Below, one piece after another: positions 3,884 to 39,486 of a stretch of 64,000 nt of DNA. A model generated the notes under the pieces. The model ran no database searches, was not told the origin of the DNA, and saw only the letters and a program-made list of their open reading frames with translations. The position numbers and the translations under genes are program-made. How positions within the stretch are numbered: the first letter of the stretch is position 1; every line of letters starts with the position of its first letter. Origin of the DNA: Odontesthes bonariensis (lineage: Eukaryota > Chordata > Actinopteri > Atheriniformes > Atherinopsidae); assembly GCF_027942865.1 (NCBI RefSeq), contig NC_134507.1:34525711-34589710 (forward strand), written 5' to 3'.

Positions 3884-3937
3884 ATGACCTCTCCTGTCTG
3901 GAATTTCTTCAAAGTGTGTCAGAAAGATGTGAAACTT
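3884..3937 (+). pseudogene. Start of a BED zinc finger, broken by an insertion
   Basis: ATG at 3884 opens MTSPVWNFFKVCQKDVKL, which matches the first half of a BED domain as found in hAT transposases. The frame is interrupted at 3938, where the ACTGCGGTCA terminus of the inverted-repeat family begins, before the zinc-binding cysteines. Only an N-terminal trace of the transposase survives. Confidence 0.6.
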
Positions 3938-4463
3938 ACTGCGGTCACGCCATCTGCGCTTCGCGCTAGCTACACTTGAAAATCGAGTGCCCGTTTACAT
4001 CGCTTCATACGGTAAAGCGTGTGAGCGGATTTATGGTGTATTCAAGTGCACCCCGTAAACTCAGTAATCTATATCGAAGTTGATTTTCATTTGTTGGAAT
4101 ACATACACCTGTCATTACTTGGTTGTTTTTTTTACTACATTCTTTTTAATGATTAGAACAAAATTATTGAAGCATATTCAGAATCAAACTCATTTCTGCA
4201 TAGTCAGATTTGAAAACTTCCTTAAAACCAAATCAAAATGTTCTCTGCCGACTCCACCAGATTCTTGTTCTACATGTCCCCAGCTACCTCTTTGGAGATT
4301 TTCAAGTTATTTCACTGCATCATTGTTTAATAATCTGATGCTGAAATCATACCCAGTGGATGATGTATATGGGCAGATTAAAATAATAATAGAAAGTAAA
4401 AAAAACAATTGTTTTCTGCAAACTCCACCAGATTCTTGTTCTACATGTCCCCAGCTACCTCTG
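3938..4463 (+). mobile_element. Fragment of the long inverted-repeat element family (same family as 25437-28115)
   Basis: Starts with ACTGCGGTCACGCCATCTGC and follows the left arm of the 25437-28115 element through the CACCTGTCATTACTTGGTTG region. It ends after two copies of the 172-bp satellite unit (CTACATGTCCCCAGCTACC at about 4272 and 4440). The second terminus is missing. Confidence 0.8.
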
Positions 4464-11249: not shown

Positions 11250-11424
11250 CCACCATGACAGGTTTGTGTCCAGGTTGTATCACACAGTCCATGTTTACTT
11301 GATTTTGGACAACTCTGAATGCTTTATTTTCAGCTGTGTTGTTAAAAGCGGAGAATTGTAAAGCGGACAATTGAGAATTGTAAAGTTCTTTTGCCACTGA
11401 ATTTACTTCACAAAATGCACTTAA

Positions 11425-13074: not shown

Positions 13075-13252
13075 GTTCTGTCAGTCGCTTTGTATGTACT
13101 GTGCATTCTTAAAAACTCTTTTAGTTTCTCGAGTTGTTCTGCGCGCGCAAGGGGGCGTGCGGTGGGCGGTGGTGGCGGTGGCCTGGACATGCAACGCGGA
13201 GGTCCTCTCAGCACGGCGGTGATTACATTTTGCGGTTATCGCGACAGCCCTA

Positions 13253-14470: not shown

Positions 14471-14474
14471 CTGA

Positions 14475-15174: not shown

Positions 15175-15217
15175 TGAGGGTGGGGAGCTGAACCTGTTGA
15201 AGAAGGTGTTCAGCTCG

Positions 15218-15460
15218 TTAGCCCTCTCCAGGGTGCCCACAGTCTGTCTGCCTTTCACCTTCAAGCCGGTTATGTCTTTCATCCCCGACCACACATCTCT
15301 GGTGTTGTTCTGCTGGAGCTTGGCCTCCAGCTTCCTCCTGTAGGAGTCCTTGCACTGCCGCAGTTTGTCCCTCAGGTCGTGCTGGATGCTCCTCATCTGG
15401 GCCTTGTCTCCTGCCCTGAAGGCCTCCTTCTTCCTGGGCTTCTTTAAGTTTTCTAGGAAA
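15218..15460 (-). pseudogene. LINE linker region upstream of RT
   Basis: The minus strand reads KKEAFRAGDKAQMRSIQHDL and CKDSYRRKLEAKLQQNNTRD, then VWSGMKDITGLK and NELNTFFNRF, the usual segment between endonuclease and RT in this LINE group. It belongs to the same copy as 13253-14470 and is separated from it by the MADF MITE. At 15460 it joins a different LINE. Confidence 0.7.
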
Positions 15461-15930
15461 TAACAAGTTGCTGTCTCTGCTGAATGGAATTTCCTAAATC
15501 CAAACTGCATTGGATGAAGAGTGGCATGGCCATTATTTCAGTGTTCAATCGGTTCTGTGGTAACCCATTTCTCCGCTACTTTGGAAATTCCAGGTAAAAT
15601 ACTTATGGGTCGATAGATTTTGTCGGCCTTAAAGACGTCGATAGTACCGTTCCTTGTTTTATGGACACATTTCCAAGATGTGCAGCTGGGTCAGCAAGAG
15701 CCTGTTTATTGGTCTTTAAAAGGTCACTAGTAAGACCAAATGAATCTCTGGCCTTTTTAGAGATGAAATATGTGAGCATTTAAAGGGCTTCGCAAGTTCC
15801 TCAACTGAAAAATCTATTGAGAACTCACAGTAATCTCCAGGTTGTTCAGTTAGCTCATCGTTTACATGGAGCTGTAGACCACTAAGATGGGGAGATAAAT
15901 AATTATGGGCGCCAGCCGAAGGCATTAGAC
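15460..15930 (-). pseudogene. LINE RT fragment (second LINE)
   Basis: Minus strand: KIYRPISILPGISKVAEKWV near 15560-15625, then QFGFRKFHSAETATCYFLEN near 15460-15510, both standard RT finger/palm motifs of the L2/Rex1 group. Upstream lies FSVEELAKPF near 15790. Frame breaks separate these blocks. Confidence 0.65.
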
Positions 15931-17090
15931 ATATTTAATCTGTTGCCAGACTTTTTATTCTCCCGTTTCCGCCCTAAAGTTCGGCGTGCTACTAGTCTAG
16001 CAGCGATGGTCCGACCGGCCTGCGTGCTTATCGATCGGGAATGGTATGCTATTATGTTTGGCTCTCATTTGTCTAAAGGAATTCCGACAAAATGGGAAAA
16101 AGTCGGAAAATTGTGAATGGGGAAAATGCATTGAAAAGCACTTAACGAGTACTATGGCCTATTTTAGAGGCCTTATAACTCAGCCATAAAGCATAACACA
16201 GACCTCATTCAAAGTTTATATGTGACAGGAGACTCTCGGCTTTAACTGAATCAAAGGGTTTGTATATATATTATACAGCTTTGACACAACGGCGGTTTAA
16301 GTTTGAGGAAGACTACATCTCAGCTGAGGTGTCTCTCCCACTATGTTTCTCACTCTGAATGTAATACTGCACCAATTCCTCAAACAAATGTCTCTCATGT
16401 CCAAAATATCTGCCCGATCTGGACAAATTTTACTTCAAAACGGCATTTTTATCACAAATTGCCTCTGAGCCCAGAGAGTCGGCCCTCCAGCTGACATTCC
16501 ACCCATTATAAAGGCCTAAAATCAGAAAATTCAGGTGAAAATGATTTTAAAACTGCCATAAAAAACGAGCCACACATAGTAGCCGAACTAAAATTACACC
16601 GCTGGCTTCTGCCGTCTCTTGGGGCGCTGACGGTTCAAGAATTATTCGGATATGACTTTTGCTTTTCGAACAGTGACCGTTTGGTCGAGATAGTCGACTG
16701 CAGTCAAAATTATAGTGCAATTTTAAGAAGCCATAGTGAGCGTACATGTCAGTGACAAAGACGAGCCGCACCTGCTCCTGTTACCGGGGCAACGTCTTGT
16801 TAGCCTGCACTGTTCTGACACTGCTTATGAGGGCAGAGCCAAGATGGCTGCTCTATTATAACAGCTTCATGTTATAAATCTGATCTGCATTTCTCCTTTA
16901 AACTGATAGTTAAGTTAAGTTTGAAATGACCCACAATGCAATGGGAAAATGCATTGAAAAGCGCTTAACGAGCCAAAAACTGCCCTATTTTGGAGGCATC
17001 ATAACTTAGCCATACAATGTCACAGAGACCTCATTCAAAGTTTATGACTGTAGACTCAACTTTATATTTTACAACGATACAACGACTCAA
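15930..17090. repeat. Unclassified repeat block with a diverged internal duplication
   Basis: Interrupts the second LINE. Segments near 16105-16220 and 16935-17050 are diverged copies: both contain AATGCATTGAAAAGC, CTTAACGAG, CCTATTTT and CAGAGACCTCATTCAAAG or a close variant, about 830 bp apart. No coding sequence and no clear terminal repeats were found. It may be a non-autonomous element with internal direct repeats. Confidence 0.45.
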
Positions 17091-17335
17091 CGTTACTATT
17101 TTTTCTAGTTTAGTTTAATATTATTAATTTTGTTCCATATTAGCTTTTAATTGCCATTTGCCCCATTTATGGCCTCAATATAGAATCTGCTTTCACCTTA
17201 CGGGTAATCCTTAAGACTTTATCTCGATTTTTCATTCATTTTATAATTTCATTGTTCAATTAAGGTAGATTATTTCTATGTTGCTTGGATTTACCCCTTT
17301 TTTTTTTAAGTGCGTTATAATATCATTGACTTTTT

Positions 17336-17765
17336 TTAATAAAGCATCTGAGCTAGCGTCAATGTCGTTATTTTCCAGAATATTAGACCTTCTAGATTTT
17401 GGATTTCCTCATTCAGGAATTGTTGCTGGCTTTTGGGTATGAAGTAGAACTGGTGACCTCTGGTGGATGCCATTAAATGCTTCCTCTTAATTTTCCATGA
17501 GCACAAGTTGTGATCTGAAAGGCCTGATAATAGATTAAAAGTCTCAGAGATTCTTTCAGGATTATTAGTAAATATTAGATCAATTGTTGTATTTGATGTA
17601 TTAGTTATTCTTGTCGGTCCTTTTATAATTTGTGTCAAATTGTACTCATCCATCAGCTGTTTAATTTTTTCCCTGACTTGATGTCCCAGTTGATATTAAA
17701 ATCAGCGAGTAGGATGATTTCCTTTTTCGAGTTGCAGTGATTTAAGGTTGTCTGAAGATTATCAT
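17336..17765 (-). pseudogene. LINE apurinic-type endonuclease domain, C-terminal half
   Basis: Minus strand: NHCNSKKEIILLADFNINWD, then YNLTQIIKGPTRITN, TTIDLIFTNNPERI and LSGLSDHNL. These are the ADFN, TRI, IDLIF and SDH motifs of the AP-endonuclease that nicks target DNA. A stop near 17650 splits the domain. Its N-terminal half is missing. Confidence 0.75.
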
Positions 17766-17815
17766 AAAACACAACCTCAAAAGGATCTAAGTCTTCTTCC
17801 TCTCTGTCATTGCAG

Positions 17816-18766
17816 AAACATAGAGCCCAAGAGGGATCCAGATGGCACTGCTGTAAGGACTGTGGGAAAGTTATCAAACGATCTCGTCTGAGGTATCATC
17901 AGATAATTCATACTGGAGAGAAGCCTTACAGCTGTGGTCAGTGTGGGGCAGCTTTCACTCAGTTAGGTAATCTAAAGACACACCAACGCATTCACACAGG
18001 AGAGAAGCCTTTCAGCTGTGGTCAGTGCGGGGCAGCTTTCACTGCATTATCTAGTCTAAAGGCACACCAACGTATTCACACAGGAGAGAAGCCATACAGC
18101 TGTGGTCAGTGTGGGGCAGCTTTCACTGCATTATCTCATCTAAAGAGACACCAACGTATTCACACAGGAGAGAAGCCATACATCTGTGGTCAGTGTGGGG
18201 CAGCTTTCACTGCATTATTTAGGCTAAAGGCACACCAATGTAGTCACACAGGAGAGAAGCCTTACAGCTGTGGTCAGTGTGGGGCAGCTTTCACTCAATT
18301 AGGTAATCTAAAGACACACCAACGTATTCACACAGGAGAGAAGCCTTTCAGCTGTGGTCAGTGTGGGGCAGCTTTCACTCAATTAGGTAATCTAAAGGCA
18401 CACCAACGTATTCACACAGGAGAGAAACCTTTCAGCTGTGGTCAGTGTGGGGCAGCTTTCACTCAATTATCTCATCTAAAGGCACACCAACGTATTCACA
18501 AAGGAGAGAGGCCATACAGCTGTGGTCAGTGTGGGGCAGCTTTCACTACATTATCTCATCTAAAGGCACACCAACGCATTCACACCGGAGAGAAGCCACA
18601 CAGCTGTGGTCAGTGTGGGGCAGCTTTCACTGAATTATCTACTCTAAAGAGACACCAACGTATTCACACAGGACAGAAACCTTTCATCTGTGGTCAGTGT
18701 GGGGCAACTTTCACTCAATTATCTCATCTAAAGAGACACCAACGTATTCACACTGCAGAGAAATGA
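17816..18766 (+). CDS. C2H2 zinc-finger protein, terminal exon with 11 fingers
   Basis: The exon has no ATG of its own. It starts after a strong acceptor (CTCTCTGTCATTGCAG, AG at 17814-17815) in phase 0 and ends at TGA 18764-18766. It encodes a short leader, one degenerate finger (C-x2-C then only 11 residues to the first H) and ten regular 28-residue fingers joined by TGEKP linkers (two variants, KGERP and TGQKP). The repeating core is CGQCGAAFT. Predicted contact residues (-1,2,3,6) vary: QGNT, ASSA, ASHR, AFRA, QGNT, QGNA, QSHA, TSHA, ESTR, QSHR. The units are highly alike at the DNA level, which favours unequal exchange. Such proteins bind DNA in the nucleus. The upstream exons are not identifiable: the intron is filled with antisense LINE sequence. 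Terminal finger 11 ends TAEK-stop. Confidence 0.8.
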   Translation, partial: KHRAQEGSRWHCCKDCGKVIKRSRLRYHQIIHTGEKPYSCGQCGAAFTQLGNLKTHQRIHTGEKPFSCGQCGAAFTALSSLKAHQRIHTGEKPYSCGQCGAAFTALSHLKRHQRIHTGEKPYICGQCGAAFTALFRLKAHQCSHTGEKPYSCGQCGAAFTQLGNLKTHQRIHTGEKPFSCGQCGAAFTQLGNLKAHQRIHTGEKPFSCGQCGAAFTQLSHLKAHQRIHKGERPYSCGQCGAAFTTLSHLKAHQRIHTGEKPHSCGQCGAAFTELSTLKRHQRIHTGQKPFICGQCGATFTQLSHLKRHQRIHTAEK

Positions 18767-20897
18767 TTGGCTTAAATCAACAACAATTTTCACGGCAGAT
18801 AAGCAAACATTCACCTGAGAGCATCAGCAGGAACTACCAATCAAAAGCCTTGCCCCTTTGTTCAGATTAAAAATCTTCTTTGTGGATTACCACCTTCTCT
18901 TGTCAGGACTTTAGTTCTGAATGTTCTGTGGGGAGCACATGTTTGAAGAACCATTGAAAGTGCTTTATAATTTGTTGGGATTGCTTTAACTGGGGACGGA
19001 TCTCCTGACATTCAAGACAAAACATGGCATCAATTGTGAGTTGATGGACAGAACAAAATGCAGTCTGTTTGAAAGTAGAAACATGTTTATTCTGTTATAC
19101 TGAACATATTTGTTTTGTTTAAAGTTAAGATCCACAAAGTAGCTTTGCACCAGCTGTGGGTATTTATGTAAACATCTGAAGAAGCAATATTTCATTTCAG
19201 TTTGATGTGAAGTCAAGCTTTACACTCGTCTGTATTTCATTGTTCTGCATTTCATTAAAGGTCAGATGTTAACTTTTCTCATTCTTTTCCTGTTCTTGCT
19301 ACACAGATATTTTTGAAGAAAATGTGTGTTTGGTTACGAGGAAAAGTTGACCCTTATCATCTTCCCCAAAGACCCAGAAATCTTTAACGCAGTCTGAAAA
19401 AGGTTTGGAGTTGTTCCCTGTACTTCCCAGACAGCTGTATGATGCTCATGACTGAAGCTGAAAGTTAAGGCTGTTCCAACACTAAAAGGGCACAAGGCTC
19501 AACTTCAAGCTGTGAAACTCTTTCAAATGTCTGTTGTGTTGGAATCAGATGTGTGAACGCATTTTAGTCCAAACGTCATGGCTGCACTGAGGGAAAAGGC
19601 AGCTAAGCAGGCTAACGGTACTTTGAATTGAACCGTTTAACAGGAGAAAACTGAGCTGATCTGTTTGTTGCTTCTACAACTGCTCAGTTACTCACACAAT
19701 CAGGTACTGAGCAGATTTACCAAACAGACATTCTGCTGTAATCTCAGATGCTCTCAGTCGCGCTGCTCACATTGTTTTATTCCACAACTCTTCTTCTTCT
19801 TCTGCCCCGACGGCTACACAACTTACCCAGAACACCCGGTGGCAGAGTGTGCACATGACACCCTTATACTTTATTGGATTGTATCTACAAACTCAAACGC
19901 TGATGATTTAAACCTGCTTCAGGCTGTTTTTGTTCCCTTTAGTTTTAAGCTGACTGTGTTTGGCGTACCCTGAGCATTTCAGTGGAAAATGTTCAGCACA
20001 GACTTGGAGTTGTATTGTGTTCTTGTGGTAACTACGTCCCCACAGCTATTATGTCCTTAAGAGTTTCTTAGAAAGCGCTTTGTGCCGCTCACAGTGGGAG
20101 AATCTCACCGACAAATCCCACTTTGGTCTAAAGATGTGATCAGCTGTGACTTTTGTGTGTTAGCGACTGGCGCTACGGTCCTGGCTGAACAGGAAGTAGC
20201 CACCAGAAATGCAAGACAGTCGCTGTAGCGACTGAATGTTACGCAGGACTGTCTTCCTGTATGCAGATGGTCATCAGTGAAGTCACCTCCCCCGAATGAA
20301 CCCCGTCATGTTGTGTATATGTGGCAAAACATGGCGAGCCAGCCGGGGGGCTGTTAGCGTGACAGAGACAGTCCCTCAGTCAGAGACCAACCTCAGAAGT
20401 TAAACCCAGTTTTTAACTGAGCTGACTCACAGTGGAAGTCACACGTTAGATCTGGTTCTCAGTGAGTGTTTCCTGTTGAGATCCAGCCGTGTCTGATCAG
20501 TGCTGCAGTTTCTTGTTTTGCATTATTCTCTCCTCTTACTCAGACTACACCTGAAACTAATCAAAATCAGGAAGCAGCATGAAGAATTGTCTCATCAGCC
20601 AATTCAAATAAGTAATAACAAGTGCTTGAAAAAGGCAAATGAATGAAGGGACGTAAAAATGAGGAAAATACCCTCAGTCCCCAGAAGTCTTTCTGGGGTT
20701 CCTGCTCCCAAAGCACACTGAGCGCTGCTTCTGTGCTTCAGTGTTTTTCAGTAGTTTGTGTTCACTTTTTCCACCTCCGTAATGATCTGTAAAACTGAAG
20801 GTTGTTGAAGAACACAGTGCTGGATCCAAACAATAGTGTAATGTTCCAATCTGACCTCCTGGTGGCAGTGTCGTCTCACTGGTGGGGATTTCTCATT
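18767..20897 (+). other. 3' UTR of the zinc-finger gene and intergenic sequence
   Basis: Unique-looking sequence. An ATTAAA poly(A) signal at 19254-19259 is a plausible 3' end of the zinc-finger transcript. A (TTC)n run lies at about 19790-19801. I found no further exon, RNA gene or repeat I can support up to 20897. Confidence 0.4.
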
Positions 20898-21701
20898 AGC
20901 CCCTTTCACACTGAGGAAGAACCCGCGTTTAATTCGTGAATTTAGCGTGTCCGCTGTTCCTTTCACACTGACGACCCGGGCTGGCGTGTCAACTCGACTC
21001 GCCTTTCGACCCGCGTCGGACCCTAGTCTTTTTGCCGAGCCGAGTTTGATGTGAAAGCAATTGACGCGGGTCGGACGTGGGCGTGACATGAGGAGTTAAA
21101 AGACAGAATGGACAGCTGATTCAGAGCAACAGCGACAGGTGTGGACAAGTTTCACTCTATTTTACTTCAAGTTCGAGACGTTTTTGAAGATGGCCAACTG
21201 GGGAGACAAGGAGGTCCATGAGCTCCTCAGCCTCCGAGCAGAGGATGTTATTTACCGCCACATGTCGGGACGGTGAAAGATGGACCTCTGCTGGAAGGGC
21301 TGGCTGTTCGCGTTCTTCTACTTCAAATTGTCGCTGGATTTCTTTAACTTGGAGATTATAGTGCTCTTGTATTCTCCGCATATGTTCTTCGGCAGCATCC
21401 CACGTTGTGACCATCCACACCCCGTAAAATAACATCTCCATGAACTGCATATACAATTGCAAAAACAAGTCCTCAAGGTGTATTTAACCCTACCTCCGAC
21501 GCATGGCTTGGGCCTACGTCATTGTACACGCCCAGCATTTTATGTGTTTCGTGTGACGCTCTGCCACTAGGCAACGCCCCCTGAACTCTGCTTCAGGTGA
21601 CACGGATCACCTAATACGCAAAGCGTTCACATTGCTCGATGCGGGTCGAAGTGGCAATTTGGACCCGCTAAGGTAGTGGGTCTCATTGTGAAAGGGGCTA
21701 C
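20898..21701 (+). mobile_element. Harbinger-type non-autonomous element with Myb/SANT remnant
   Basis: Inverted ends TAGCCCCTTTCACACTGAG at the left and the inverse of TAGCCCCTTTCACAATGAG at the right. The target duplication is not clear (TA or none). The interior is rich in GACCCGCG motifs and holds the start of a Myb/SANT-type gene at 21190. That gene type, not the ends, drives the superfamily call. Confidence 0.65.
21190..21276 (+). pseudogene. Start of a Myb/SANT-like DNA-binding protein, truncated
   Basis: ATG at 21190 gives MANWGDKEVHELLSLRAEDV followed by IYRHMSGR and a stop at 21274-21276. The pattern W-x-D-KEV-x-ELL-x-(I/L)R is the first helix region of Myb/SANT-like proteins that accompany Harbinger nucleases. 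Only 28 residues remain. The rest of the domain is absent. Confidence 0.55.
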
Positions 21702-22029
21702 AGATTCTTTTAAAAACAGGATTCAACGTCAGATATTCATGATCTGAAGGGGATGAACTCCTGTGCTTCTGCAGAATACCTGAGTTTCCTCCAGTGCGAC
21801 CATGAAGTTGGTGTTTCTCACCATATATATTTATATTTACACTAACTTATAGATTTAATCTGCTGTAACTCCTGGTTAAATGGAGGTTTTCCTCTTTCTT
21901 TAACTGCAGAATTCCACCGTAATATAATTCTAGTTAAAAAAAATTAAATAATAAACTCATATGTCAGCTTTAGTTGTTTAGAAATTTAGATTGATGGTAC
22001 CCCTAACCCTAACCCTTTGACTCTTCAGT
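21702..22029. other. Intergenic sequence, nothing recognised
   Basis: AT-rich sequence without a supported feature. A two-and-a-half-unit CCCTAA run at 22001-22015 is too short to be an interstitial telomere. Confidence 0.4.
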
Positions 22030-25436: not shown

Positions 25437-28115
25437 ACTGCAGTCACGCCATCTGCGCTTCGGAGAGGCACGGTCGCGCTAGCTACACTTGAAAATCGAG
25501 TGCCCGTTTACATTGCGTCGTACGGTAAAGCGTGTGAGTGGATTTATGGTGCATTCAAGTGCACCCCGTAAACTCAGAAATCTATATCAAAGTTGATTTT
25601 TCATTTGTTGGAATACATACACCTGTCATTACTTGGTTGTTTTTTTTACTACATTCTTTTTAATGATTAAAACAAAATGATAGAACAAAATTATTGAAGC
25701 ATTTTCAGAATCAAACTCATTTCTGCATTGTCAGATTTGAAAACTTCATTTAGAACCAAATCAAAATGTTCTCTGCCAACTCCACCAGATTCTTGTTCTA
25801 CATGTCCCCAGCTACCTCTGTGGTGATTTTCAAGTTATTTCACTGCATCTTTGTTTAATAATCTGATGCTGAAATCATCGGTCACATCCCCTCATCTCTT
25901 TATATCACTCTTCTTCTTTCCTTTTGCATAATGTGGTTTCATTTCACCATTTTTGCCTTTTACTTGCTTGATATCCTTGTATGTGTGCGTGTGTGTGTGT
26001 GTGTGTGTGAGACCATATTCCTTATTGGACATCCAGCCCTACCTGCACCTGTCAGGGGGGTGTAGGGGAGGTGAAGGTAGGACACGGATGCGGACTTCAA
26101 TATAGAATACTGGGTTTATTAACAAAAACAAAGTACAAACAAAAAGCGCGGCAGGGCGGGGCGGGGCGGGGCGGGACGAGACGAGACGAGATGAGACGAG
26201 CAATGGCAAAACCAAAAACCAAGACATGACCCGAAACACAAAAAACTTAAAACATGAGTCCATGGGCGTGACAGCACCAGATCCAAATCAACTTGTCATC
26301 TCTACCTTGTCTGCACCTCTCATCAGTGCACTAACACCTCACAGTGAGCAGTTTAATAAATACACCCTATCATAGTGGCCACTTGCATGGAAGATTTTGT
26401 TGAGAATTTGAATAAAATGTCTTTTCAGATTCCCAAAGAAACTTAATATTGATAAATCTGATGTAGCAATCAGATTTAACATATTTAGAAATGATTTAAC
26501 AGAACTATATATGAGTGAAGATCACATAATGAGGACATTACAGTTAAGCCGTTACACAACTAAAACTATAATTTATTTTCCATCCTAATGCCTACACTGA
26601 ACTGTCGATATAGTGTGGCTATAGGTTTAAGGGTATAGGTGATCTATCTAGCTGTGTACAACATAAAATTGTTATCAAGAAATAGTTTATTTGATGTGTC
26701 ATATGAATGCAAACTTTTTCTAAAAAGCTGGAAAATTAAGTTTAACATGGAGATGTGAAACTTAAAAAAGGGAAATAAGTCAAAAAATGAAGGAGTGCAG
26801 ATAAATAATGGAGAGATATGGTATATTTAACCCCATAAAACCACATCTCGATAAAATACATGGTATTACACAGGAACATCTGGGCAACAGCTGAAAAAAA
26901 AGGACAAATTGTTTGTTTTGTTTATTTAACAGTGTATTTTTTAATTCCAACATGAACAAAAGCTATGTCAGACGTAGCCGTGAACCTTGTGTTTGAAATC
27001 TCAATATTTAGGAACATATAGCAGTAAAGCAACATGAAAGCCAGGATAGGAGTATCTGGAGATGTGTTGTAGATTACATGCTGCATATATATTTGTCACA
27101 TCCACTGTTGCTCTGAGCTCTGGAATTGCCAGTCCATGGTGCTAAAGCTCCACAACGTCACATCATTTCAAGTCAAGAATCAGGTCATGCCTGGGCCTCC
27201 TTCATACACAGTTTTGAGTTAGCTTGCTTATTTTTTAAACTGCTCACTGTGAGGTGTTGTGGTGATAATTTCAGTTTGGTTCTGTCTCTTCCCTGTTTGG
27301 CTGTAGTGCACTGATGAGAGGTGCAGACAGGGTAGAGATGACCAGTTGATTTGGGCTGGTGCAGGTAGGGCTGGATGTCCAATAAGGAATATGGTCACAC
27401 ACACACACACATACAAGGACATCAAGCAAGTAAAAGGCAAAAATGGTGAAATGAAACCACATTATGAAAAAGGAAAGAAGAAAAGTGATATAAAGAGATG
27501 GGGGGATGTGACCGATGATTTCAGCATCAAATAATCACAAAAAGATGCAGTGAAATAACTTGAAAATCACCACAGAGGTAGCTGGGGACATGTAGAACAA
27601 GATTCTGGAGTTTGCAGAAAACAATTAGAATTGATGTTTTTATGATTTTTTTAATCTAGCCATATACATCATGCATTGGGTATGATTTCAGCATCAGATT
27701 ATTAAAAAATGATGCAGTGAAATGACTTGAAAATCACCACAGAGGTAGCTGGGGACATGTAGAAAAAGAATCTGGTGGAGAGAACATTTTGATTTGGTTC
27801 TAAATGAAGTTTTCAAATCTGACTATGCAGAAATGAGTTGATTCTGAATATGCTTCAATAATTTTGTTCTATCATTTTGTTTTAATCATTAAAAAGAATG
27901 TAGTAAAAAAAACAACCAAGTAATGACAGGTGTATGTATTCCAACAAATGAAAAATCAACTTCGATATAGATTTCTGAGTTTATGGGGTGCACTTGAATG
28001 CACCATAAATCCACTCACACGCTTTACCGTACGACGCGATGTAAACGGGCACTCGATTTTCAAGTGTAGCTAGCGCGAGCGTGCCTCTCCGAAGCGCAGA
28101 TGGCGTGAGCGCAGT
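25437..28115. mobile_element. Inverted-repeat element P1 (2.7 kb)
   Basis: Terminal inverted repeats begin ACTGCAGTCACGCCATCTGC at 25437 and, on the minus strand, ACTGCGCTCACGCCATCTGC at 28115. The arms are matched over about 450 bp of subterminal sequence, then a 172-bp satellite unit, then a (GT)n-bearing block. The left arm reaches about 26360 (with a solo LTR inserted) and the right arm runs from about 27230. The spacer 26400-27230 is homologous to 30330-31200 in the large element. Flanking 9-mers do not match (CTTTCAGCC, ACTTTGTCG). I see no transposase. Confidence 0.8.
26050..26273 (-). mobile_element. Solo LTR with 5-bp target duplication
   Basis: The 224-bp insertion runs TGTCA...TGACA and is flanked by GCACC at 26045-26049 and 26274-26278. 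Comparison with the uninterrupted sister sequences (near 27350 and 36655 in inverted form) confirms the ends. On the minus strand it contains AATAAA (26120-26115), a plausible poly(A) signal, and downstream GC-rich pentamer repeats (GGGGC)n and (GAGAC)n. TG/CA ends, the 5-bp duplication and the poly(A) signal fit an LTR retrotransposon (Gypsy-like), reduced to one LTR by recombination. Confidence 0.8.
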
Positions 28116-28702
28116 ACTTTGTCGTCCCCTGCTAGCTCCACAATCACTGTCAGCTCCTTTTTGAAGCCGCCGTCTTTCGCATTCTCCCCTGCATTCCTCA
28201 CATCATTCAAGCTCGCATTCCTACTTTCTCCCTTCCGCATTCACTTCTCCATTCATTCTCATTTTCTCCTGCATTCATTCTTTCATTAATGGCGCTTTCC
28301 CACCAGCTCGCTTCGGCTCGGCGCGCTATTGCGAGTGAGTACAGTCTGCGAGAAACGTGAGTGGTTAAGTTCGTTTTTTAAAAACATGTTTAGTGCCATA
28401 TGTGTCTCCTTCTTTAAGAAAGTGTTATGTCAATTGAATATAAATATAATTCATTACAAACGTTTTTTGGGGGAAAAATGTCTTTGCCTTGACACAAGAC
28501 AAAGACATTTTCCTGGGCTAGCTTAAGCAGGTTCCCAATTATGCTGAAAAGAATTGTCCATTAAGACGAACATTTCTTTATTTGGATAATGTGTTTCATA
28601 AACGGGGAAGAAAAGGGGAAGAAAGAATTATATTTCACAAGCTACGATCGAGTTTTGACACCAGAGGGCGTCATGGTCATAAATGTTCTTCGACAGTTAA
28701 CC
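28116..28702. other. Sequence between the two inverted-repeat elements
   Basis: A CATTC-rich stretch (28180-28290), then unique-looking sequence. Positions 28694-28702 are the left copy (CAGTTAACC) of the 9-bp target duplication of the next element. No gene seen. Confidence 0.5.
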
Positions 28703-28928
28703 ACTGCGGTCAAGTGAGCCGCCACTCGTTCATCCGCCGTTAAGGCAGCCGCCACTTAACTTTCACATGCGCTCATATTCTCTACTACTACGGTTTTAAA
28801 CGGCGCGACACACACAACGTTATTAGTTCTAACCTAAACGACGTGTGAAAGAGTGGCGGCTGGGAATGGCGGCTAGCTTGACCATCGTAAATGCACTGCC
28901 AGATGAGCGAGTTACAGCAGGCTTTAGC

Positions 28929-28930
<2 letters not shown>

Positions 28931-28988
<58 letters not shown>

Positions 28989-28991
28989 TCT
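28931..28991. repeat. (CT)n microsatellite, left arm
   Basis: About 60 bp of CT dinucleotides with two TTTCTC interruptions. The mirror tract in the other arm (38971-39058) is longer, one of the few visible length differences between the arms. Confidence 0.9.
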
Positions 28992-29023
28992 ATATATAGG
29001 CTATATATAGCAAACATTAATTA

Positions 29024-30260
29024 ACGTTTGGATCAGAATTTCACTTCAAACATCTTGCATAATAAGTTTTGTCAAACATCTTGCATATTCAAGTTTTTGT
29101 CGTTTAGAAATCATGATATGTGAGGTTTTTGAAGGACCTTAGCTCCAAAATTGTACAGTAAAATCTATTGGTTCTTTGTTCAGGAATGACTCAGTGGTAC
29201 TATCAGTATGTCCATGTACTCCATTGCTAAGAATAATTGACATTTGGGTCAACATTTCACTTCAAAGTGCTTACATATGCAAGTTTTGCCCATCATAACG
29301 TGAGGTATTAGGACAATTACTCCAAATTTTTACAGTAAAATCTACGAAGTCCTCTTCCAGGCATGACTCAGTGGAGCTGTCAGTATGTCCATGTGATTCA
29401 TTGTTAATAATAATGAACATCTGGATAAGCACTGTACTTCAAAATACTTGCATATGATTTTTTTGTCCGCTAAAATGCAATGTTGTGTTTTTGAAGGACC
29501 CTTGCTCCAAAATTGTACAGTAAAATCTATTGGTTCTTTGTTCAGGCATGACTCAGTGGCACCAAATATATGTCCATGTAATCCATTGCCAAGAATAATT
29601 GACATTTGGGTCAACATTTCACTTCAAACATCTTGCATATTCAAGTTTTGTCGATTAGATATCGTGATATGTGAGGTTTTTGAAAGACCTTAGCTCCAAA
29701 ATTGTACAGTAAAATCTATTGGTTCCTTTTTCAGAAAGGACTCGGTGGTACCAAATATATGTCCATGTAATCCATTGCCAAGAATAATTCGCATTTGGGT
29801 CAACATTTCACTTCAAAGTACTTGCATATGCAAGTTTTGCCCATCGTAACATTATGTGAGGTATTAGGACAATTACTCCACATTTTTACAGTAAAATCTA
29901 CTAAGTCCTCTTCCAGGCACAACTCAGTGGAGCTGTCAGTATGTCCATGTGATTCATTGTTAACAATAATGAACATCTGGATAAGCACTGTACTTCAAAA
30001 TACTTGCATATGCTTTTTGTGTCTGCTAAAATGCAATGTTGTGTTTCTGAAGAACCCTAGCTCCAAAATTGTACAGTAAAATCTACTGGTATCTTGGTCA
30101 AGCATAACTCAGTGGAACTGTTAGTACATCCATATATTTCACTGCCAATAATAATGAACGTTTGGATAAGCATTTCACTTCAAACTGCTTGCATATGGAC
30201 GTTTTGTTTTTGATAAGACGTAATCAAAAACAGTAAATTCTATTGGTTGATTTTCCAACT
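29024..30260 (+). repeat. Satellite B array, about 180-bp units (left arm)
   Basis: Seven units recognisable by (G)ACATTTGGGTCAACATTTC or a variant at about 29024, 29241, 29413, 29602, 29791, 29971 and 30158. Each has CTCCAAAATTGTACAGTAAA and ACTCAGTGG downstream. Units alternate between two subtypes (TTTGGGTCAAC and TCTGGATAAGC), so a dimeric higher-order pattern is likely. No coding function seen. Confidence 0.85.
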
Positions 30261-31479
30261 CCAGGACCGACTGCAGCACGCCATCCAAGGAGGGGTTCGC
30301 CAAAAGGGTTCCTGTGATACCAATCCTCTCAGATTACCAAAGAAACTGAATATTGATCAATCTAATGTAGCAATCAGATTTAACATATTTACAACTCAAC
30401 ATATTTAAAAATTATTTAACAGAACTATATATGAGTGAAGATCACATAATGAGCACATTAGAGTTAAGACTAGTTTCACAACTCAAACTATAATTTCTTT
30501 TCCATCCTAATGCCTACACTGAACTGTCGATATAGTGTGGATATAGGTTTAAGGGTATAGGTGATCTATCTAGCTGTGTACAACATACAATTATTATCAA
30601 GAAATAGTTTATTTGCTGTGTAATATGAATGCAAACTTTTTCTAAAAAGCTGGAAAATTAAGTTTAACATGGAGATGTGAAACTTAAAAAAGGGAAATAA
30701 GTCAAAAAATGAAGGAGTACAGATAAATAATGGAGAGATATGGTATATTTAACCCCATAAAACCACATCTCGATAAAATACATGGTATTACACAGGAACA
30801 TATGGGCAACAGCTGAAAAAAAAGGACTAATTGTTTGTTTTGTTTATTTAACAGTGTATTTTTTAATTCCAAAATGTCTTTATAGGAAATTCCTGCAGTA
30901 ACGCAAAATTAAAAGCTATGTCAGAAGTAGCCGTGAACCTTGTGTTTGAAATCTCAATATTTAGGAACATATAGCAGGAAAGCAACATGAAAGCCAGGAT
31001 AGGAGTATCTGGAGATGTGTTGTAGATTACATGCTGCATATATATTTGTCACATCCACTGTTGCTCTGAAATTGCCAGTCCATGGTGCTAAAGCTCCACA
31101 ACGTCCCATCACTTCAAGTCAAGAATCAGGTCATGCCTGGGCCTCCTTGATACACAGTTTTGAGTTAGCTTGCTTATTTTTTAAACTGCTCACTGTGAGG
31201 TGCTGTGGTGATAAATTAAGTTTGGTTCTGTCTCTTCCCTGTGTGGCAGTAGTGCACTGATGAGAGGTGCAGACAAGGTATAGATGACCAGTTGATTTGG
31301 ACTGGTGGAGGTAGGGCTGGATGTCCAATAAGGAATATGGTCACACACACACATACAAGGACATCAAGCAAGTAAAAGGCAAAAATGGTGAAATGAAATA
31401 ACATTATGAAAAAGTAAAGAAGAAGAGTGATATAAAGAGATGGGGGGATGTCACCGATGAATTCAGCATCAAATAATCA

Positions 31480-33390
31480 CAAAATGAAGCAGTGAAATAA
31501 CTTGAAAATCACCACAGAGGTAGCTGGGGACATGTAGAACAGGAATCTGGTGGAGTTTGCAGAAAATAATCGTTTGTTTATTTTTTATGAATATTTTAAT
31601 ATAGCCATAAACACCATGCATTGGGCAAGATTTCAACATCATATTATTAAACAATGATGCAGTGAAATAACTTGAAAATCACCACAGAGGTAGCTGGGGA
31701 CATGTAGAACAAGAATCTGGTGGAGTTTGCAGAAAATAATCGTTTGTTTATTTATTATGAATATTTTAATATAGCCATATACATCATGCATTGAGCAAGA
31801 TTTCAACGTCAGATTATTAAAAGATGATGCAGTGAAATGACTTGAAAATCACCACAGAGGTAGCTGGGGACATGTAGAACAAGAATCTGGTGGAGTTTGC
31901 AGAAAATAATCCTTTTTTTTTTTATTTTTTATGAATATTTTAATATAGCCATATACACCATGCATTGAGCAAGATTTCAACGTCAGATTATTAAACAATG
32001 ATGCAGTGAAATAACTTGAAAATCACCACAGATGTAGCTGGGGACATGTAGAACAAGAATCTGGTGGAGTTTGCAGAAAATAATCGTTTGTTTATTTTTT
32101 ATGAATATTTTAATATAGCCATATACACCATGCATTGGGCAAGATTTCAACATCATATTATTAAACAATGATGCAGTGAAATGACTTGAAAATCACCACA
32201 GAGGTAGCTGGGGACATGTAGAACAAGAATCTGGTGGAGTTTGCAGAAAATAATCGTTTTATTTTATTTTTTATGAATATTTTAACATAGCCATATACAC
32301 CATGCATTGAGCAAGATTTCAACGTCAGATTATTAAACAATGATGCAGTGAAATAACTTGAAAATCACCACAGATGTAGCTGGGGACATGTAGAACAAGA
32401 ATCAGGTGGAGTTTGCAGAAAATAATCGTTTGTTTATTTTTTATGAATATTTTAATATAGCCATATACACCATACATTGGGCAAGATTTCAACATCATAT
32501 TATTAAAAGATGATGCAGTGAAATGACTAGAAAATCACCACAGAGGTAGCTGGGGACATGTAGAACAGGAATCTGGTGGATTTTGCAGAAAATAATCGTT
32601 TTTTTTATTTTTTATGAATATTTTAATAAAGCCATATACACCATGCATTGGGCAAGATTTCAACATCATATCATTAAACAATGATGCAGTGAAATGACTA
32701 GAAAATCGCCAGAGAGGTAGCTGGGGACATGTAGAACAAGAATCTGGTGGAGTTTGCAGATAAAATAATCCTTTTTTTAAATTTTTTATGAATATTTTAA
32801 TATAGCCATATACACCATACATTGGGCAAGATTTCAACATCATATTATTAAACGATGATGCAGTGAAATGACTAGCAAATCACCACAGAGGTAGCTGGGG
32901 ACATGTAGAACAGGAATCTGGTGGATTTTGCTGAAAATAATCGTTTTTTTTATTTTTTATGAATATTTTAATAAAGCCATATACACCATGCATTGGGCAA
33001 GATTTCAACATCATATCATTAAACAATGGATGCAGTGAAATGACTAGAAAATCGCCAGAGAGGTAGCTGGGGACATGTAGAACAAGAATCTGGTGGAGTT
33101 TGCAGAAAATAATCGTTTGTTTATTTTTTATGAATATTTTAATATAGCCATATACACCATGCATTGGGCAAGATTTCAACATCATATTATTAAACAATGA
33201 TGCAGTGAAATGACTTGAAAATCACCACAGAGGTAGCTGGGGACATGTAGAACAGGAATCTGGTGGAGTTTGCAGAAAATAATCGTTTTTTTTTATTTTT
33301 TATGAATATTTTAACATAGCCATATACACCATGCATTGGGCAAGATTTCAACATCATATTATTAAAAGATGATGCAGTGAAATGACTAGA
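31480..33390 (-). repeat. Satellite A array, about 172-bp units (left arm, 11 copies)
   Basis: The motif GGTAGCTGGGGACATGTAGA recurs about every 172 bp (near 31519, 31689, 31859, 32035, 32205, 32378, 32548, 32718, 32892, 33064, 33235). Units differ by small substitutions and by the length of a T-rich stretch. The same unit occurs singly or doubly in P1 and in the fragment at 3938-4463. Confidence 0.9.
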
Positions 33391-33404
33391 AAAAAATAGA
33401 TGGA

Positions 33405-33735
33405 ATTCTCTCTCTCTCTCTGCCTCTATATATATATATAGGCTATAGCAAATAATAATTAACGTTTGGATCAGAATTTCACTTCAAACATCTTGCATAA
33501 TAAGTTTTGTCAAACATCTTGCATATTCAAGTTTTTGTCGTTTCGAAATCATGATATGTGAGGTTTTTGAAGGACCTTAGCTCCAAAATTGTACAGTAAA
33601 ATCTATTGGTTCTTTGTTCAGGAAGGACTCAGTGGTACTATCAGTATGTCCATGTACTCCATTGCCAAGAATAATTGACATTTGGGTCAACATTTCACTT
33701 CAAAGTGCTTACATATGCAAGTTTTTCTATCATAA
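33405..33735 (+). repeat. Partial copy of the subterminal/B block in the palindrome spacer
   Basis: Repeats 28975-29289 in the same orientation: CT tract, TATATATAGGCTATAGCAAA, first B units. It is therefore a third copy of arm sequence sitting at the centre, not part of the symmetric arms. Confidence 0.8.
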
Positions 33736-34125
33736 ATAGGTTTTTGATGGACACTATACAAATACAGCGTTCACGCACTGTGGCATTTCCGTACCAGGTG
33801 ATGATGGACCCTGTCAAGGTGCTCTCCACTGCTGAGGAGTAAAACGCTTTTAGGATGGGTGTTGAAACTTTGAACTTTCTCAACAGGCGAACAAAGTATA
33901 ATCTCTTTCTGGATTTCTTTATAATGTGTTGCGTGTTGTTTGTCCATGTTAAGTCCTTTTTGATATGTATCCCCAGGTATTTAATGCTCTCTACTCTCTC
34001 AACAGGTTCTTTGCAGATGGAAAGTGGAGTGAAGTCCACCACCATTTCCTTAGTCTTACTGACATTAAGTGCAAAGTTGTTGAGCTGGCACCACTGTGAG
34101 ATGTTTTCACAAAATCTGGCCTAAT
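33736..34125 (-). pseudogene. LINE ORF2 fragment at the palindrome centre
   Basis: The minus strand reads CENISQWCQLNNFALNVSKT, KEMVVDFTP, then ERVESIKYLGIHIKKDLTWT, RKRLYFVRLLRKFKVST and SSAVESTLTGSIITWYGNAT. This is the RT thumb and following region of an L2-like LINE (YLG and LR-LRKF motifs). No RT catalytic box and no 3' end. Both of its borders coincide with the arm boundaries. Confidence 0.75.
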
Positions 34126-34129
34126 GCAT

Positions 34130-36480
34130 GATGTATATGGCCATATTAAAATATTCAAAAAAAATAAAATAAAACGATTATTTTCTGCAAACTCCACCAG
34201 ATTCTTGTTCTACATGTCCCCAGCTACCTCTGTGGTGATTTTCTAGTCATTTCACTGCATCATTGTTTAATGATATGATGTTGAAATCTTGCCCAATGCA
34301 TGGTGTATATGGCTTTATTAAAATATTCATAAAAAATAAAAAAAACGATTATTTTCTGCAAAATCCACCAGATTCCTGTTCTACATGTCCCCAGCTACCT
34401 CTGTGGTGATTTTCTAGTCATTTCACTGCATCATCTTTTAATAATATGATGTTGAAATCTTGCCCAATGTATGGTGTATATGGCTATATTAAAATATTCA
34501 TAAAAAATAAACAAACGATTATTTTCTGCAAACTCCACCAGATTCTTGTTCTACATGTCCCCAGCTACCTTTATGGTGATTTTCAAGTTATTTCACTGCA
34601 TCATTGTTTAATAATCTGACGTTGAAATCTTGCTCAATGCATGGTGTATATGGCTATGTTAAAATATTCATAAAAAATAAAAAAAACGATTATTTTCTGC
34701 AAACTCCACCAGATTCTTGTTCTACATGTCCCCAGCTACCTCTGTGGTGATTTTCAAGTTATTTCACTGCATCATTGTTTAATAATATGATGTTGAAATC
34801 TTGCCCAATGCATGGTGTATATGGCTATATTAAAATATTCATAAAAAATAAAAAGAAGGATTATTTTCTGCAAACTCCACCAGATTCTTGTTCTACATGT
34901 CCCCAGCTACCTCTGTGGTGATTTTCAAGTCATTTCACTGCATCATCTTTTAATAATATGATGTTGAAATCTTGCCCAATGCATGGTGTATATGGCTATA
35001 TTAAAATATTCATAAAAAATAAACAAACGATTATTTTCTGCAAACTCCACCAGATTCTTGTTCTACATGTCCCCAGCTACCTCTGTGGTGATTTTCAAGT
35101 CATTTCACTGCATCATTGTTTAATAATCTGACGTTGAAATCTTGCTCAATGCATGGTGTATATGGCTATATTAAAATATTCATAAAAAATAAACAAACGA
35201 TTATTTTCTGCAAACTCCACCAGATTCTTGTTCTACATGTCCCCAGCTACCTTTATGGTGATTTTCAAGTTATTTCACTGCATCATTGTGTAATAATGTG
35301 ACGTTGAAATCTTGCTCAATGCATGGTGTATATGGCTATGTTAAAATATTCATAAAAAATAAAAAAAACGAGTATTTTCTGCAAACTCCACCAGATTCCT
35401 GTTCTACATGTCCCCAGCTACCTCTGTGGTGATTTTCAAGTTATTTCACTGCATCATTGTTTAATAATATGATGTTGAAATCTTGCCCAATGCATGGTGT
35501 ATATGGCTATATTAAAATATTCATAAAAAATAAAAGGAAGGATTATTTTCTGCAAACTCCACCAGATTCTTGTTCTACATGTCCCCAGCTACCTCTGTGG
35601 TGATTTTCAAGTCATTTCACTGCATCATCTTTTAATAATATGATGTTGAAATCTTGCCCAATGCATGGTGTATATGGCTATATTAAAATATTCATAAAAA
35701 ATTAAAAAAACGATTATTTTCTGCAAACTCCACCAGATTCTTGTTCTACATGTCCCCAGCTACCTTTGTGGTGATTTTCAAGTTATTTCACTGCATCATT
35801 GTTTAATAATATGATGTTGAAATCTTGCCCAATGCATGGTGTATATGGCTATGTTAAAATATTCATAAAAAATAAAAAAAACGATTATTTTCTGCAAACT
35901 CCACCAGATTCCTGTTCTACATGTCCCCAGCTACCTCTGTGGTGATTTTCAAGTCATTTCACTGCATCATCTTTTAATAATCTGACGTTGAAATCTTGCC
36001 CAATGCATGGTGTATATGGCTATATTAAAATATTCATAAAAAATAAACAAACGATTATTTTCTGCAAACTCCACCAGATTCTTGTTCTACATGTCCCCAG
36101 CTACCTCTGTGGTGATTTTCAAGTCATTTCACTGCATCATTGTTTAATAATATGATGTTGAAATCTTGCCCAATGCATGGTGTATATGGCTATATTAAAA
36201 TATTCATAAAAAATAAAAAATAGGATTATTTTCTGCAAACTCCACCAGATTCTTGTTGTACATGTCCCCAGCTACCTTTGTGGTGATTTTCAAGTCATTT
36301 CACTGCATCATTGTTTAATAATATGATGTTGAAATCTTGCCCAATGCATGGTGTATATGGCTATATTAAAATATTCATAAAAAATAAACAAACGACTATT
36401 TTCTGCAAACTCCACCAGATTCTTGTTCTACATGTCCCCAGCTACCTCTGTGGTGATTTTCAAGTCATTTCACTGCTTCA
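34130..36480 (+). repeat. Satellite A array, about 172-bp units (right arm, 14 copies)
   Basis: TACATGTCCCCAGCTACC recurs about every 172 bp from near 34212 to 36431, in the opposite orientation to the left-arm array. It has three units more than the left arm, so the arrays have changed length since the arms formed. Confidence 0.9.
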
Positions 36481-37640
36481 TTTTGTGATTATTTGATGCT
36501 GAATTCATCGGTGACATCCCCCCATCTCTTTATATCACTCTTCTTCTTTACTTTTTCATAATGTTATTTCATTTCACCATTTTTGCCTTTTACTTGCTTG
36601 ATGTCCTTGTATGTGTGTGTGTGACCATATTCCTTATTGGACATCCAGCCCTACCTCCACCAGCCCAAATCAACTGGTCATCTATACCTTGTCTGCACCT
36701 CTCATCAGTGCACTACTGCCACACAGGGAAGAGACAGAACCAAACTTAATTTATCACCACAGCACCTCACAGTGAGCAGTTTAAAAAATAAGCAAGCTAA
36801 CTCAAAACTGTGTATCAAGGAGGCCCAGGCATGACCTGATTCTTGACTTGAAGTGATGGGACGTTGTGGAGCTTTAGCACCATGGACTGGCAATTTCAGA
36901 GCAACAGTGGATGTGACAAATATATATGCAGCATGTAATCTACAACACATCTCCAGATACTCCTATCCTGGCTTTCATGTTGCTTTACTGCTATATGTTC
37001 CTAAATTGAGATTTCAAACACAAGGTTCACGGCTACTTCTGACATAGCTTTTAATTTTGCGTTACTGCAGGAATTTCCTATAAAGACATTTTGGAATTAA
37101 AAAATACACTGTTAAATAAACAAAACAAACAATTTGTCCTTTTTTTTCAGCTGTTGCCCAGATGTTCCTGTGTAATACCATGTATTTTATCGAGATGTGG
37201 TTTTATGGGGTTAGAAATACCATATCTCTCCATTATTTATCTGTACTCCTTCATTTTTTGACTTATTTCCCTTTTTTAAGTTTCACATCTCCATGTTAAA
37301 CTTAATTTTCCAGCTTTTTAGAAAAAGTTTGCATTCATATTACACAGCAAATAAACTATTTCTTGATAATAATTGTATGTTGTACACAGCTAGATAGATC
37401 ACCTATACCCTTAAACCTATATCCACACTATATCGACAGTTCAGTGTAGGCATTAGGATGGAAAAGAAATTATAGTTTGAGTTGTGAAACTAGTCTTAAC
37501 TCTAATGTGCTCATTATGTGATCTTCACTCATATATAGTTCTGTTAAATAATTTTTAAATATGTTGAGTTGTAAATATGTTAAATCTGATTGCTACATTA
37601 GATTGATCAATATTCAGTTTCTTTGGTAATCTGAGAGGAT
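36481..37640 (-). repeat. Block of about 1.2 kb shared three times (reverse copy)
   Basis: Reverse complement of 30325-31500 and of 26425-27540. Contains a short (GT)n stretch and a block ending AACATCATTCCT-type sequence. Small open frames in this block occur in all copies but match no protein I know and end at block borders. Confidence 0.8.
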
Positions 37641-37699
37641 TGGTATCACAGGAACCCTTTTGGCGAACCCCTCCTTGGATGGCGTGCTGCAGTCGGTCC

Positions 37700-38945
37700 T
37701 GGAGTTGGAAAATCAACCAATAGAATTTACTGTTTTTGATTACGTCTTATCAAAAACAAAACGTCCATATGCAAGCAGTTTGAAGTGAAATGCTTATCCA
37801 AACGTTCATTATTATTGGCAGTGAAATATATGGATGTACTAACAGTTCCACTGAGTTATGCTTGACCAAGATACCAGTAGATTTTACTGTACAATTTTGG
37901 AGCTAGGGTTCTTCAGAAACACAACATTGCATTTTAGCAGACACAAAAAGCATATGCAAGTATTTTGAAGTACAGTGCTTATCCAGATGTTCATTATTGT
38001 TAACAATGAATCACATGGACATACTGACAGCTCCACTGAGTTGTGCCTGGAAGAGGACTTAGTAGATTTTACTGTAAAAATTTGGAGTAATTGTCCTAAT
38101 ACCTCACATAATGTTACGATGGGCAAAACTTGCATATGTAAGTACTTTGAAGTGAAATGTTGACCCAAATGCGAATTATTCTTGGCAATGGATTACATGG
38201 ACATATATTTGGTACCACTGAGTCCTTTCTGAAAAAGGAACCAATAGATTTTACTGTACAATTTTGGAGCTAAGGTCTTTCAAAAACCTCACATATCACG
38301 ATATCTAATCGACAAAACTTGAATATGCAAGATGTTTGAAGTGAAATGTTGACCCAAATGTCAATTATTCTTGGCAATGGATTACATGGACATATATTTG
38401 GTGCCACTGAGTCATGCCTGAACAAAGAACCAATAGATTTTACTGTACAATTTTGGAGCAAGGGTCCTTCAAAAACACAACATTGCATTTTAGCGGACAA
38501 AAAAATCATATGCAAGTATTTTGAAGTACAGTGCTTATCCAGATGTTCATTATTATTAACAATGAATCACATGGACATACTGACAGCTCCACTGAGTCAT
38601 GCCTGGAAGAGGACTTAGTAGATTTTACTGTAAAAATTTGGAGTAATTGTCCTAATACCTCACGTTATGATGGGCAAAACTTGCATATGTAAGCACTTTG
38701 AAGTGAAATGTTGACCCAAATGTCAATTATTCTTAGCAATGGAGTACATGGACATACTGATAGTACCACTGAGTCATTCCTGAACAAAGAACCAATAGAT
38801 TTTACTGTACAATTTTGGAGCTAAGGTCCTTCAAAAACCTCACATATCATGATTTCTAAACGACAAAAACTTGAATATGCAAGATGTTTGACAAAACTTA
38901 TTATGCAAGATGTTTGAAGTGAAATTCTGATCCAAACGTTAATTA
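37700..38945 (-). repeat. Satellite B array (right arm)
   Basis: Mirror of 29024-30260 with the same unit order and subtypes; only scattered single-base differences were seen when reading the two side by side. Confidence 0.85.
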
Positions 38946-38970
38946 ATATTTGCTATATATAGCCTATATA

Positions 38971-38975
38971 GAGAG

Positions 38976-39058
<83 letters not shown>
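38971..39058. repeat. (GA)n microsatellite, right arm
   Basis: About 88 bp of GA repeats, mirror of the CT tract at 28931 but longer. Confidence 0.9.
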
Positions 39059-39062
<4 letters not shown>

Positions 39063-39486
39063 GCTAAAGCCTGCTGTAACTCGCTCATCTGGCAGTGCAT
39101 TTACGATGGTCAAGCTAGCCGCCATTCCCAGCCGCCACTCTTTCACACGTCGTTTAGGTTAGAACTAATAACGTTGTGTGTGTCGCGCCGTTTAAAACCG
39201 TAGTAGTAGAGAATATGAGCGCATGTGAAAGTTAAGTGGCGGCTGCCTTAACGGCGGATGAACGAGTGGCGGCTCACTTGACCGCAGTCAGTTAACCGCT
39301 TTGAAGAAAATGGCCGCCCATAATAGTTGTGAATGCTCTTGTTGAAACTAATTATGTAGTGTAAATTACTAGAGGTGTTCGACGGCGCTGTGTTTATATA
39401 TGTAAACACGTGTATTTTAAATGGTACTGAGTAATGGTAATGGTACGCTTTTGCTTTGGAAAATTAAATAAATTGATTTTAAATAA

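What the first reader, a model, noticed from the sequence alone, without database searches (positions are those of the whole stretch)
28703..39288. 10.6-kb foldback element with ~5-kb arms, two satellite families and an exact 9-bp target duplication
CAGTTAACC at 28694-28702 and 39289-39297 flank matched ACTGCGGTCA termini, so the whole 10.6-kb palindrome behaved as one insertion. It has no transposase I recognise, yet its arms are packed with 180-bp and 172-bp satellites. A satellite-carrying, palindromic, non-coding mobile unit of this size is unusual. The 9-bp duplication hints at a Mutator-like source (inference). It may seed satellite arrays around the genome and form cruciforms or large hairpin RNAs that feed small-RNA pathways.
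Basis: partly seen in the sequence, partly recalled or inferred. Interest (0 to 1): 0.88.

Follow-up and report, generated by a model that had tools for sequence, protein, structure and literature searches.

The report
Fish foldback transposon carrying satellite arrays
This is a real, recently mobile, gene-less palindromic DNA transposon in a fish genome that carries two blocks of satellite DNA wherever it jumps, like foldback elements known from flies; its jumping enzyme is still unknown.

Summary
Window 28703-39288 is a 10,586-bp palindrome with identical 230-bp ends, arms holding ~185-bp and ~171-bp tandem repeats, and an exact 9-bp target duplication. The genome, almost certainly Odontesthes bonariensis, holds many relatives. 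Of 15 copies examined (window plus 14), five have exact 9-bp duplications, two match 8/9, one 7/9, two (one insertion) show 8 bp, five show none. Joined-flank queries found paralogous empty sites for 7 of 7 duplication-bearing copies tested, the window copy included: insertion is shown. Both arms of a copy share variants at 18 of 22 informative sites; array length and unit order are copy-specific. No transposase of its own was found. A CxC3/KDZ-type gene in one copy is a nested transposon. MULE-domain places lie in none of the 18 tip pairs made from 100 of 183 listed tips. Best reading: a non-autonomous foldback family moved in trans, source probably Mutator-like but unproven. The paper listings seen showed no fish counterpart.

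The parts
28694..28702 (.). left target-site duplication CAGTTAACC
   Evidence: exact 9-bp match with 39289-39297; single copy at paralogous empty sites
28703..28932 (+). left terminus T (230 bp), tip ACTGCGGTCA, 4 copies of AGCCGCCAYT-type motif in both orientations
28933..28991 (+). (TC)n tract behind the terminus
29125..30207 (+). left ~185-bp tandem array (S185)
30208..31461 (+). left unique block U; 30329-31725 is 91% identical to 26425-27780
31462..33393 (+). left ~171-bp satellite array (S172)
33394..34111 (.). core: a copy of the outer TC/S185 junction plus a 116-aa RT-like ORF fragment (33695-34045, minus strand)
34112..36503 (-). right ~171-bp satellite array
36504..37755 (-). right unique block U
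37756..38838 (-). right ~185-bp tandem array
38970..39058 (-). (AG)n tract behind the right terminus
39059..39288 (-). right terminus T, 0 differences from the left in 230 bp
39289..39297 (.). right target-site duplication CAGTTAACC
25437..28115 (.). related smaller foldback E2: ends ACTGCAGTCA/ACTGCGCTCA, 442-bp outer arms 95.5% identical, no target duplication seen by eye
3937..4463 (+). single E2-type arm E3 with about two S172 units, inside a longer dispersed repeat

Best explanation
It is a non-autonomous foldback DNA transposon. Shown: the unit inserted as one block with a 9-bp target duplication, relatives inserted elsewhere in the same way, and empty paralogous sites exist. Inferred: a transposase supplied in trans, probably Mutator-like, binds the tip and the repeated AGCCGCCAYT motifs in each 230-bp end and moves the whole palindrome. 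Inferred from shown patterns: after or during movement the two arms are copied onto each other (intramolecular conversion, or gap repair that switches template between inverted arms), which keeps each palindrome nearly perfect, while the satellite arrays grow and shrink by unequal exchange or replication slippage. Each jump therefore delivers a satellite array to a new site, and its length changes between copies.
For: 201-bp end: 50 matches, 17 at the top score (100%, full length), mostly in opposite-orientation pairs (lower bound, 40 of 75 candidates scored). Flank scores over 15 copies: 5 at 9/9, 2 at 8/9, 1 at 7/9; C161 and C19 (one insertion) with 8 bp; 5 with none; 208 control pairings: none at 8 or 9, one at 7. 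Empty sites contiguous across the junction for 7 of 7 joined flanks, e.g. the window site at C2:33453424-33453620 (99%) and C2:36411674-36411886 (96%) (40 of 4762 candidates scored). Arm pairs of 7 long-type copies differ at 0-10 of about 2335 bp (mean 5.1) against a mean of 12.5 between copies; 18 of 22 informative sites (minor state in at least two arms; singletons left out) fully concordant; 0 of 2000 random pairings and 2 of 5040 left-right pairings as low as observed (two left arms are identical). Copy C24a: nine units colinear from the tips between its arms, and a block of 15 units repeated 20 units further on. Motif AGCCGCCAYT/complement 8 times in the element, 0 elsewhere in the window; tandem 69-bp copies of it in L029 and L034. 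Tip pattern 183 hits, reversed control 0.
Against: No transposase tied to these tips was found. 5 of 15 copies, 4 of them among the 7 near-identical long-type copies, show no target duplication, so simple insertion does not explain every copy. Between-copy arm differences go down to 0, so the 10 differences between the window's own arms are within the between-copy range. The motif as a binding site rests on analogy only. Array lengths rest on one assembly.
Confidence: 0.85

Rival explanations
1. The trans-acting enzyme is not Mutator-like but of another superfamily (Merlin, a P/Galileo-type, or an undescribed one), so this is a foldback of another lineage.
For: No PF10551 place (8 places, 43 of 43 candidates scored) lies inside any of the 18 tip-bounded intervals paired by script from the 100 listed tips, nor in C24c (32867257-32885207), paired by hand. 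The stretches read at four MULE places (L039-L042) hold no exact ACTGCGGTCA, only scattered 10-mers with two mismatches. Foldbacks arise in different superfamilies (PMC3169594 and PMC3573991, passages read).
Against: 9-bp duplications are common for MULE transposases (PMC3169594 and the table in PMC6446971, passages read); Galileo has 7 bp (PMC3573991). 83 of 183 tips were not listed, so intervals were missed, and the ends of the MULE elements were not reached.
Confidence: 0.3
2. Many near-identical copies spread or were reshuffled by recombination between copies (chimeric flanks, inversions, deletions), with true transposition rarer than the copy number suggests.
For: 5 of 15 copies lack a duplication though ends are present; of these C28, C24b, C16 and C2b differ between their two 230-bp ends at 0 or 1 site. 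Galileo shows chimeric copies with non-matching flanks (PMC3573991, passages read).
Against: No left flank of one copy matched the right flank of another at 8/9 or better in 208 comparisons, so no reciprocal exchange partner is visible among these copies; 7 copies have empty sites.
Confidence: 0.2
3. A KDZ/Zisupton-type transposase moves the family.
For: A gene with a CxC3 domain (E 1.9e-8) lies between the tips of the 25.6-kb copy on C20.
Against: It sits in a 15.5-kb insert inside block U with its own 105-bp inverted ends and an about 8-bp duplication read by eye, so it is a nested passenger.
Confidence: 0.02
4. The palindrome is an in-place inverted duplication or an assembly artefact.
For: Perfect palindromes can arise from chimeric reads (general knowledge).
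Against: Related architecture in 10 long- or short-type copies with different array lengths on eight contigs, precise ends, target duplications in part of them and empty sites.
Confidence: 0.02

Closest known systems
Tetris (Drosophila virilis foldback; PMC4079207, passages read)
   Same: non-autonomous foldback, 8-10 bp duplications, tandem ~220-bp repeats inside the inverted arms, no transposase found, arms feed satellite arrays
   Different: arms here are ~4.7 kb in the window copy and longer in C24a (Tetris up to 1,735 bp), two tandem-repeat families per arm, host is a fish; arrays outside copies were not tested here
Galileo (P-superfamily foldback; PMC3573991, passages read)
   Same: long repetitive inverted arms, some copies without matching duplications, independent change of repeat number in the two arms
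   Different: 7-bp duplications and P-type transposase there; 9 bp and no known transposase here
Tm1 (Mutator/Foldback of root-knot nematodes; PMC3169594, passages read)
   Same: 9-bp duplications, composite inverted ends with tandem repeats, small MITE-like forms
   Different: Tm1 has a form with a Phantom-type MULE transposase and ~14-bp repeats; no transposase tied to these tips here
Rehavkus (PMC6446971, passages read)
   Same: 9-bp duplications and a minisatellite in the element
   Different: encodes a transposase; listed there from Arthropoda and Annelida only
FB/NOF of Drosophila (recalled; cited in PMC4079207)
   Same: foldback arms of tandem repeats, 9-bp duplication (recalled)
   Different: not compared by sequence

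Membership tests
Foldback elements (structural class) | long inverted arms with internal tandem repeats and a short middle without a transposase gene | tested here: met
Foldback elements (structural class) | mobile unit with target-site duplication and other copies | tested here: met
Mutator-like (MULE) | 9-11 bp target duplication | tested here: met
   5 of 15 copies exact 9/9; one 53-bp unit 9/9; 5 of 15 show none
Mutator-like (MULE) | MULE DDE transposase between the same tips in at least one relative | tested here: inconclusive
   8 PF10551 places, none inside the 18 tip intervals paired by script nor in C24c; 83 of 183 tips not listed
P / Galileo | 7-8 bp duplication (7 for Galileo, PMC3573991; 8 for P, recalled) | tested here: not met
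   9 bp in 5 exact copies; only the C161/C19 insertion shows 8
P / Galileo | THAP/P-type transposase | not tested
   no search made
KDZ / Zisupton | KDZ gene belonging to the same element | tested here: not met
   in the one copy with a CxC3 gene it is a nested insert with its own ends; the genome search for PF18758 did not complete
Rehavkus | PHD-finger transposase | not tested
   no sequence or model of it was searched with

The most novel reading that the evidence does not exclude
A recently active vertebrate foldback family whose palindromic arms evolve in concert, whose size runs from 53 bp to perhaps some 28 kb between matching tips, and which works as a satellite-dispersal vehicle moved by a transposase of an undescribed lineage.
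Probability: 0.3. Interest if true: 0.72.

Novelty: new variant of a known kind. Interest (0 to 1): 0.56.

Why it matters
It gives a direct vertebrate case of a DNA transposon that carries and reshapes satellite arrays, with near-identical copies, empty sites and arm-to-arm homogenisation in one genome, so how satellites disperse and how long palindromes are kept can be tested in a living fish.

Tried and rejected
KDZ/Zisupton gene as the partner: rejected, because the 15.5-kb segment interrupts U at matching positions and has its own inverted ends. L031 holds a hAT-like ORF (by eye, no family search) inside S172, read as another nested insert. MULE places L039/L041 (ZSWIM-type domain in L039) and L040/L042: no exact tip in the stretches read; four of the eight places were read, the ends of the L040-type elements were not reached, and the search for them did not complete. 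E2 as a clean family member: weakened, because the 322-bp E2 arm continues upstream into a longer dispersed repeat in E3, L043 and L044 and E2 shows no target duplication; that end sequence had 383 candidates genome-wide, 40 scored. Reading the sequence upstream of E3 as a BED-finger exon: no Pfam support, dropped. Swapped flanks between copies: none at 8/9. The 20 units of 53 bp as independent insertions: not so for the two read (L045, L046), which have the same flanks and so are one event copied with its host repeat; the other 18 were not read.

Full report
Observation. The palindrome, its matched tips and the 9-bp duplication are in the sequence at the stated places. Module order in the window copy is T (230 bp), (TC)n, S185 array, unique block U, S172 array, core, then the mirror image. 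The two T ends are identical over 230 bp. The core repeats the outer junction once and holds an RT-like ORF fragment. The longest ATG ORF in the element has 116 aa.

Host. The window lies at C2:34525711-34589710 of a 945-Mb genome. Two proteins of Odontesthes bonariensis come from a contig of exactly 48,530,455 bases, the length of C1. I take the host to be that fish (inference, strong).

Copies. The 201-bp end gave 50 matches, 17 at the top score (40 of 75 candidates scored). The 21-base tip with up to two mismatches gave 183 places against 0 for the reversed control. Of the 100 listed, 40 form 20 units of 53 bp, 36 form 18 pairs from 651 bp to 27.9 kb, and 24 are unpaired; the pairing is by position and orientation, so the largest pairs need checking. 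I fetched 14 copies besides the window copy and ten further stretches, eight of them with partial or broken relatives. Of the 15, seven including the window copy are the long type; three (C21, C16, C12) lack the S185 array and most of U; C24c, C20, C161, C19 and C1 are diverged or rearranged. C161 and C19 look like one insertion in two contigs.

Insertion. Of 15 copies five show exact 9/9 duplications (window, C24a, C12, C24c, C20), C21 and C1 show 8/9, C27 7/9 at its outer tip, C161/C19 an exact 8 bp, and C28, C25, C24b, C16, C2b none. Of 208 wrong pairings none reached 8 and one reached 7. Seven joined flanks (window, C24a, C12, C24c, C20, C21, C19) each hit at least one contiguous place elsewhere (40 of 4762 candidates scored). 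Those seven targets are therefore repeated sequences, which may reflect target choice, or the repeat content, or that only such targets leave a paralogous empty site. C1 was in neither query; C27, C28, C24b, C16 and C2b were in the second, which did not complete; C25 was in none.

Arms. Over about 2337 bp of S185 plus U the two arms of a copy differ at 0 (C24a) to 10 (window) sites, mean 5.1, against a mean of 12.5 between copies, range 0 to 21. Eighteen of 22 informative sites are concordant in every copy; singletons are not among the 22. This is concerted evolution within palindromes. It is not complete: the window copy's arms differ as much as arms of different copies often do.

Satellite. 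Arms carry 0 to 58 counted units, usually unequal between arms. In C24a units 1-9 from the tips match between arms and a block of 15 units recurs 20 units on; C21 has six colinear units. Of the other eight copies C12 has a run of two and seven, the window included, have one or none; five of the eight (C24b, C25, C27, C28, C2b) have four units or fewer in at least one arm, so they say little. No run of five or more is shared between copies. So arrays turn over faster than the rest of the arm.

Ends. AGCCGCCAYT or its complement occurs four times per end and nowhere else in the window. L029 and L034 carry tandem 69-bp copies of that part. By analogy with Galileo these may be extra binding sites (inference; the analogy from passages of PMC4079207 and PMC3573991).

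Micro-element. L045 is a 53-bp unit of two tips flanked by TACCAGTAG on both sides; L046 has the same flanks with one change. One insertion, or a larger one shrunk later, was then copied with its host repeat.

Transposase. See Tried and rejected. MULE-domain places number eight. L040 has a 579-aa open frame with the MULE domain (E 2.5e-11); a partly matching O. bonariensis protein (95% over 42% of the query) has FLYWCH. It is a possible source only.

Literature. Searches for foldback elements with fish, zebrafish or vertebrate terms (listings of 13 of 13, 15 of 270, 15 of 20 and 12 of 15 papers) and for this host with transposable elements (10 of 11) listed no such element by title or start of abstract. 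I read passages of PMC4079207, PMC6446971, PMC3573991, PMC3169594 and PMC6431247, no whole text. Most subscription journals and Repbase are not covered.

Noticed in passing
window 25437-28115: Second, smaller foldback with tips one base off at each end; 26425-27780 is 91% identical to part of block U and S172 of the main element.
   Followed up: partly
window 3937-4463; L043 and L044 1-421: Single E2-type arm within a longer high-copy repeat (383 candidates, 40 scored) that in E3 and L044 also carries S172 sequence.
   Followed up: partly
L045, L046 and 18 further 53-bp tip pairs: 53-bp unit made of two tips, with a 9-bp duplication in L045; L045 and L046 share their flanks.
   Followed up: partly
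C20 copy (L023-L025), element positions about 6377-21946: Nested 15.5-kb transposon with 105-bp inverted ends, an about 8-bp duplication and a CxC3 (KDZ-associated) gene.
   Followed up: partly
L040 1444-3180: Open 579-aa MULE-domain frame; MULE places also on C25, C1, C15 and others, L042 on C25 being 98% alike over 1975 columns.
   Followed up: partly
copies C28, C25, C24b, C16, C2b: Well-preserved ends but no target duplication; unexplained.
   Followed up: partly
C28 copy (L009), right flank: CAGTTAACC, the window's duplication, occurs three bases outside the right end; perhaps chance.
   Followed up: no
C24:2352335 and C24:2526316 (L032, L033): Mirror-image element pieces 174 kb apart, each beside a repeat array whose translation looks like that of window 2183-2431.
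   Followed up: no
window 17906-18762: C2H2 zinc-finger array of 84-bp units in a 332-aa open frame (zinc fingers recognised by eye).
   Followed up: no
window 60518-61063: Open frame whose relatives carry PF07117, named from Oryzias, Menidia and killifishes.
   Followed up: partly
window 52843-52979 and 63554-64000: Perfect (CATGCA)n array of 22.8 copies, and a 79-bp tandem array (97%) reaching the window end.
   Followed up: no
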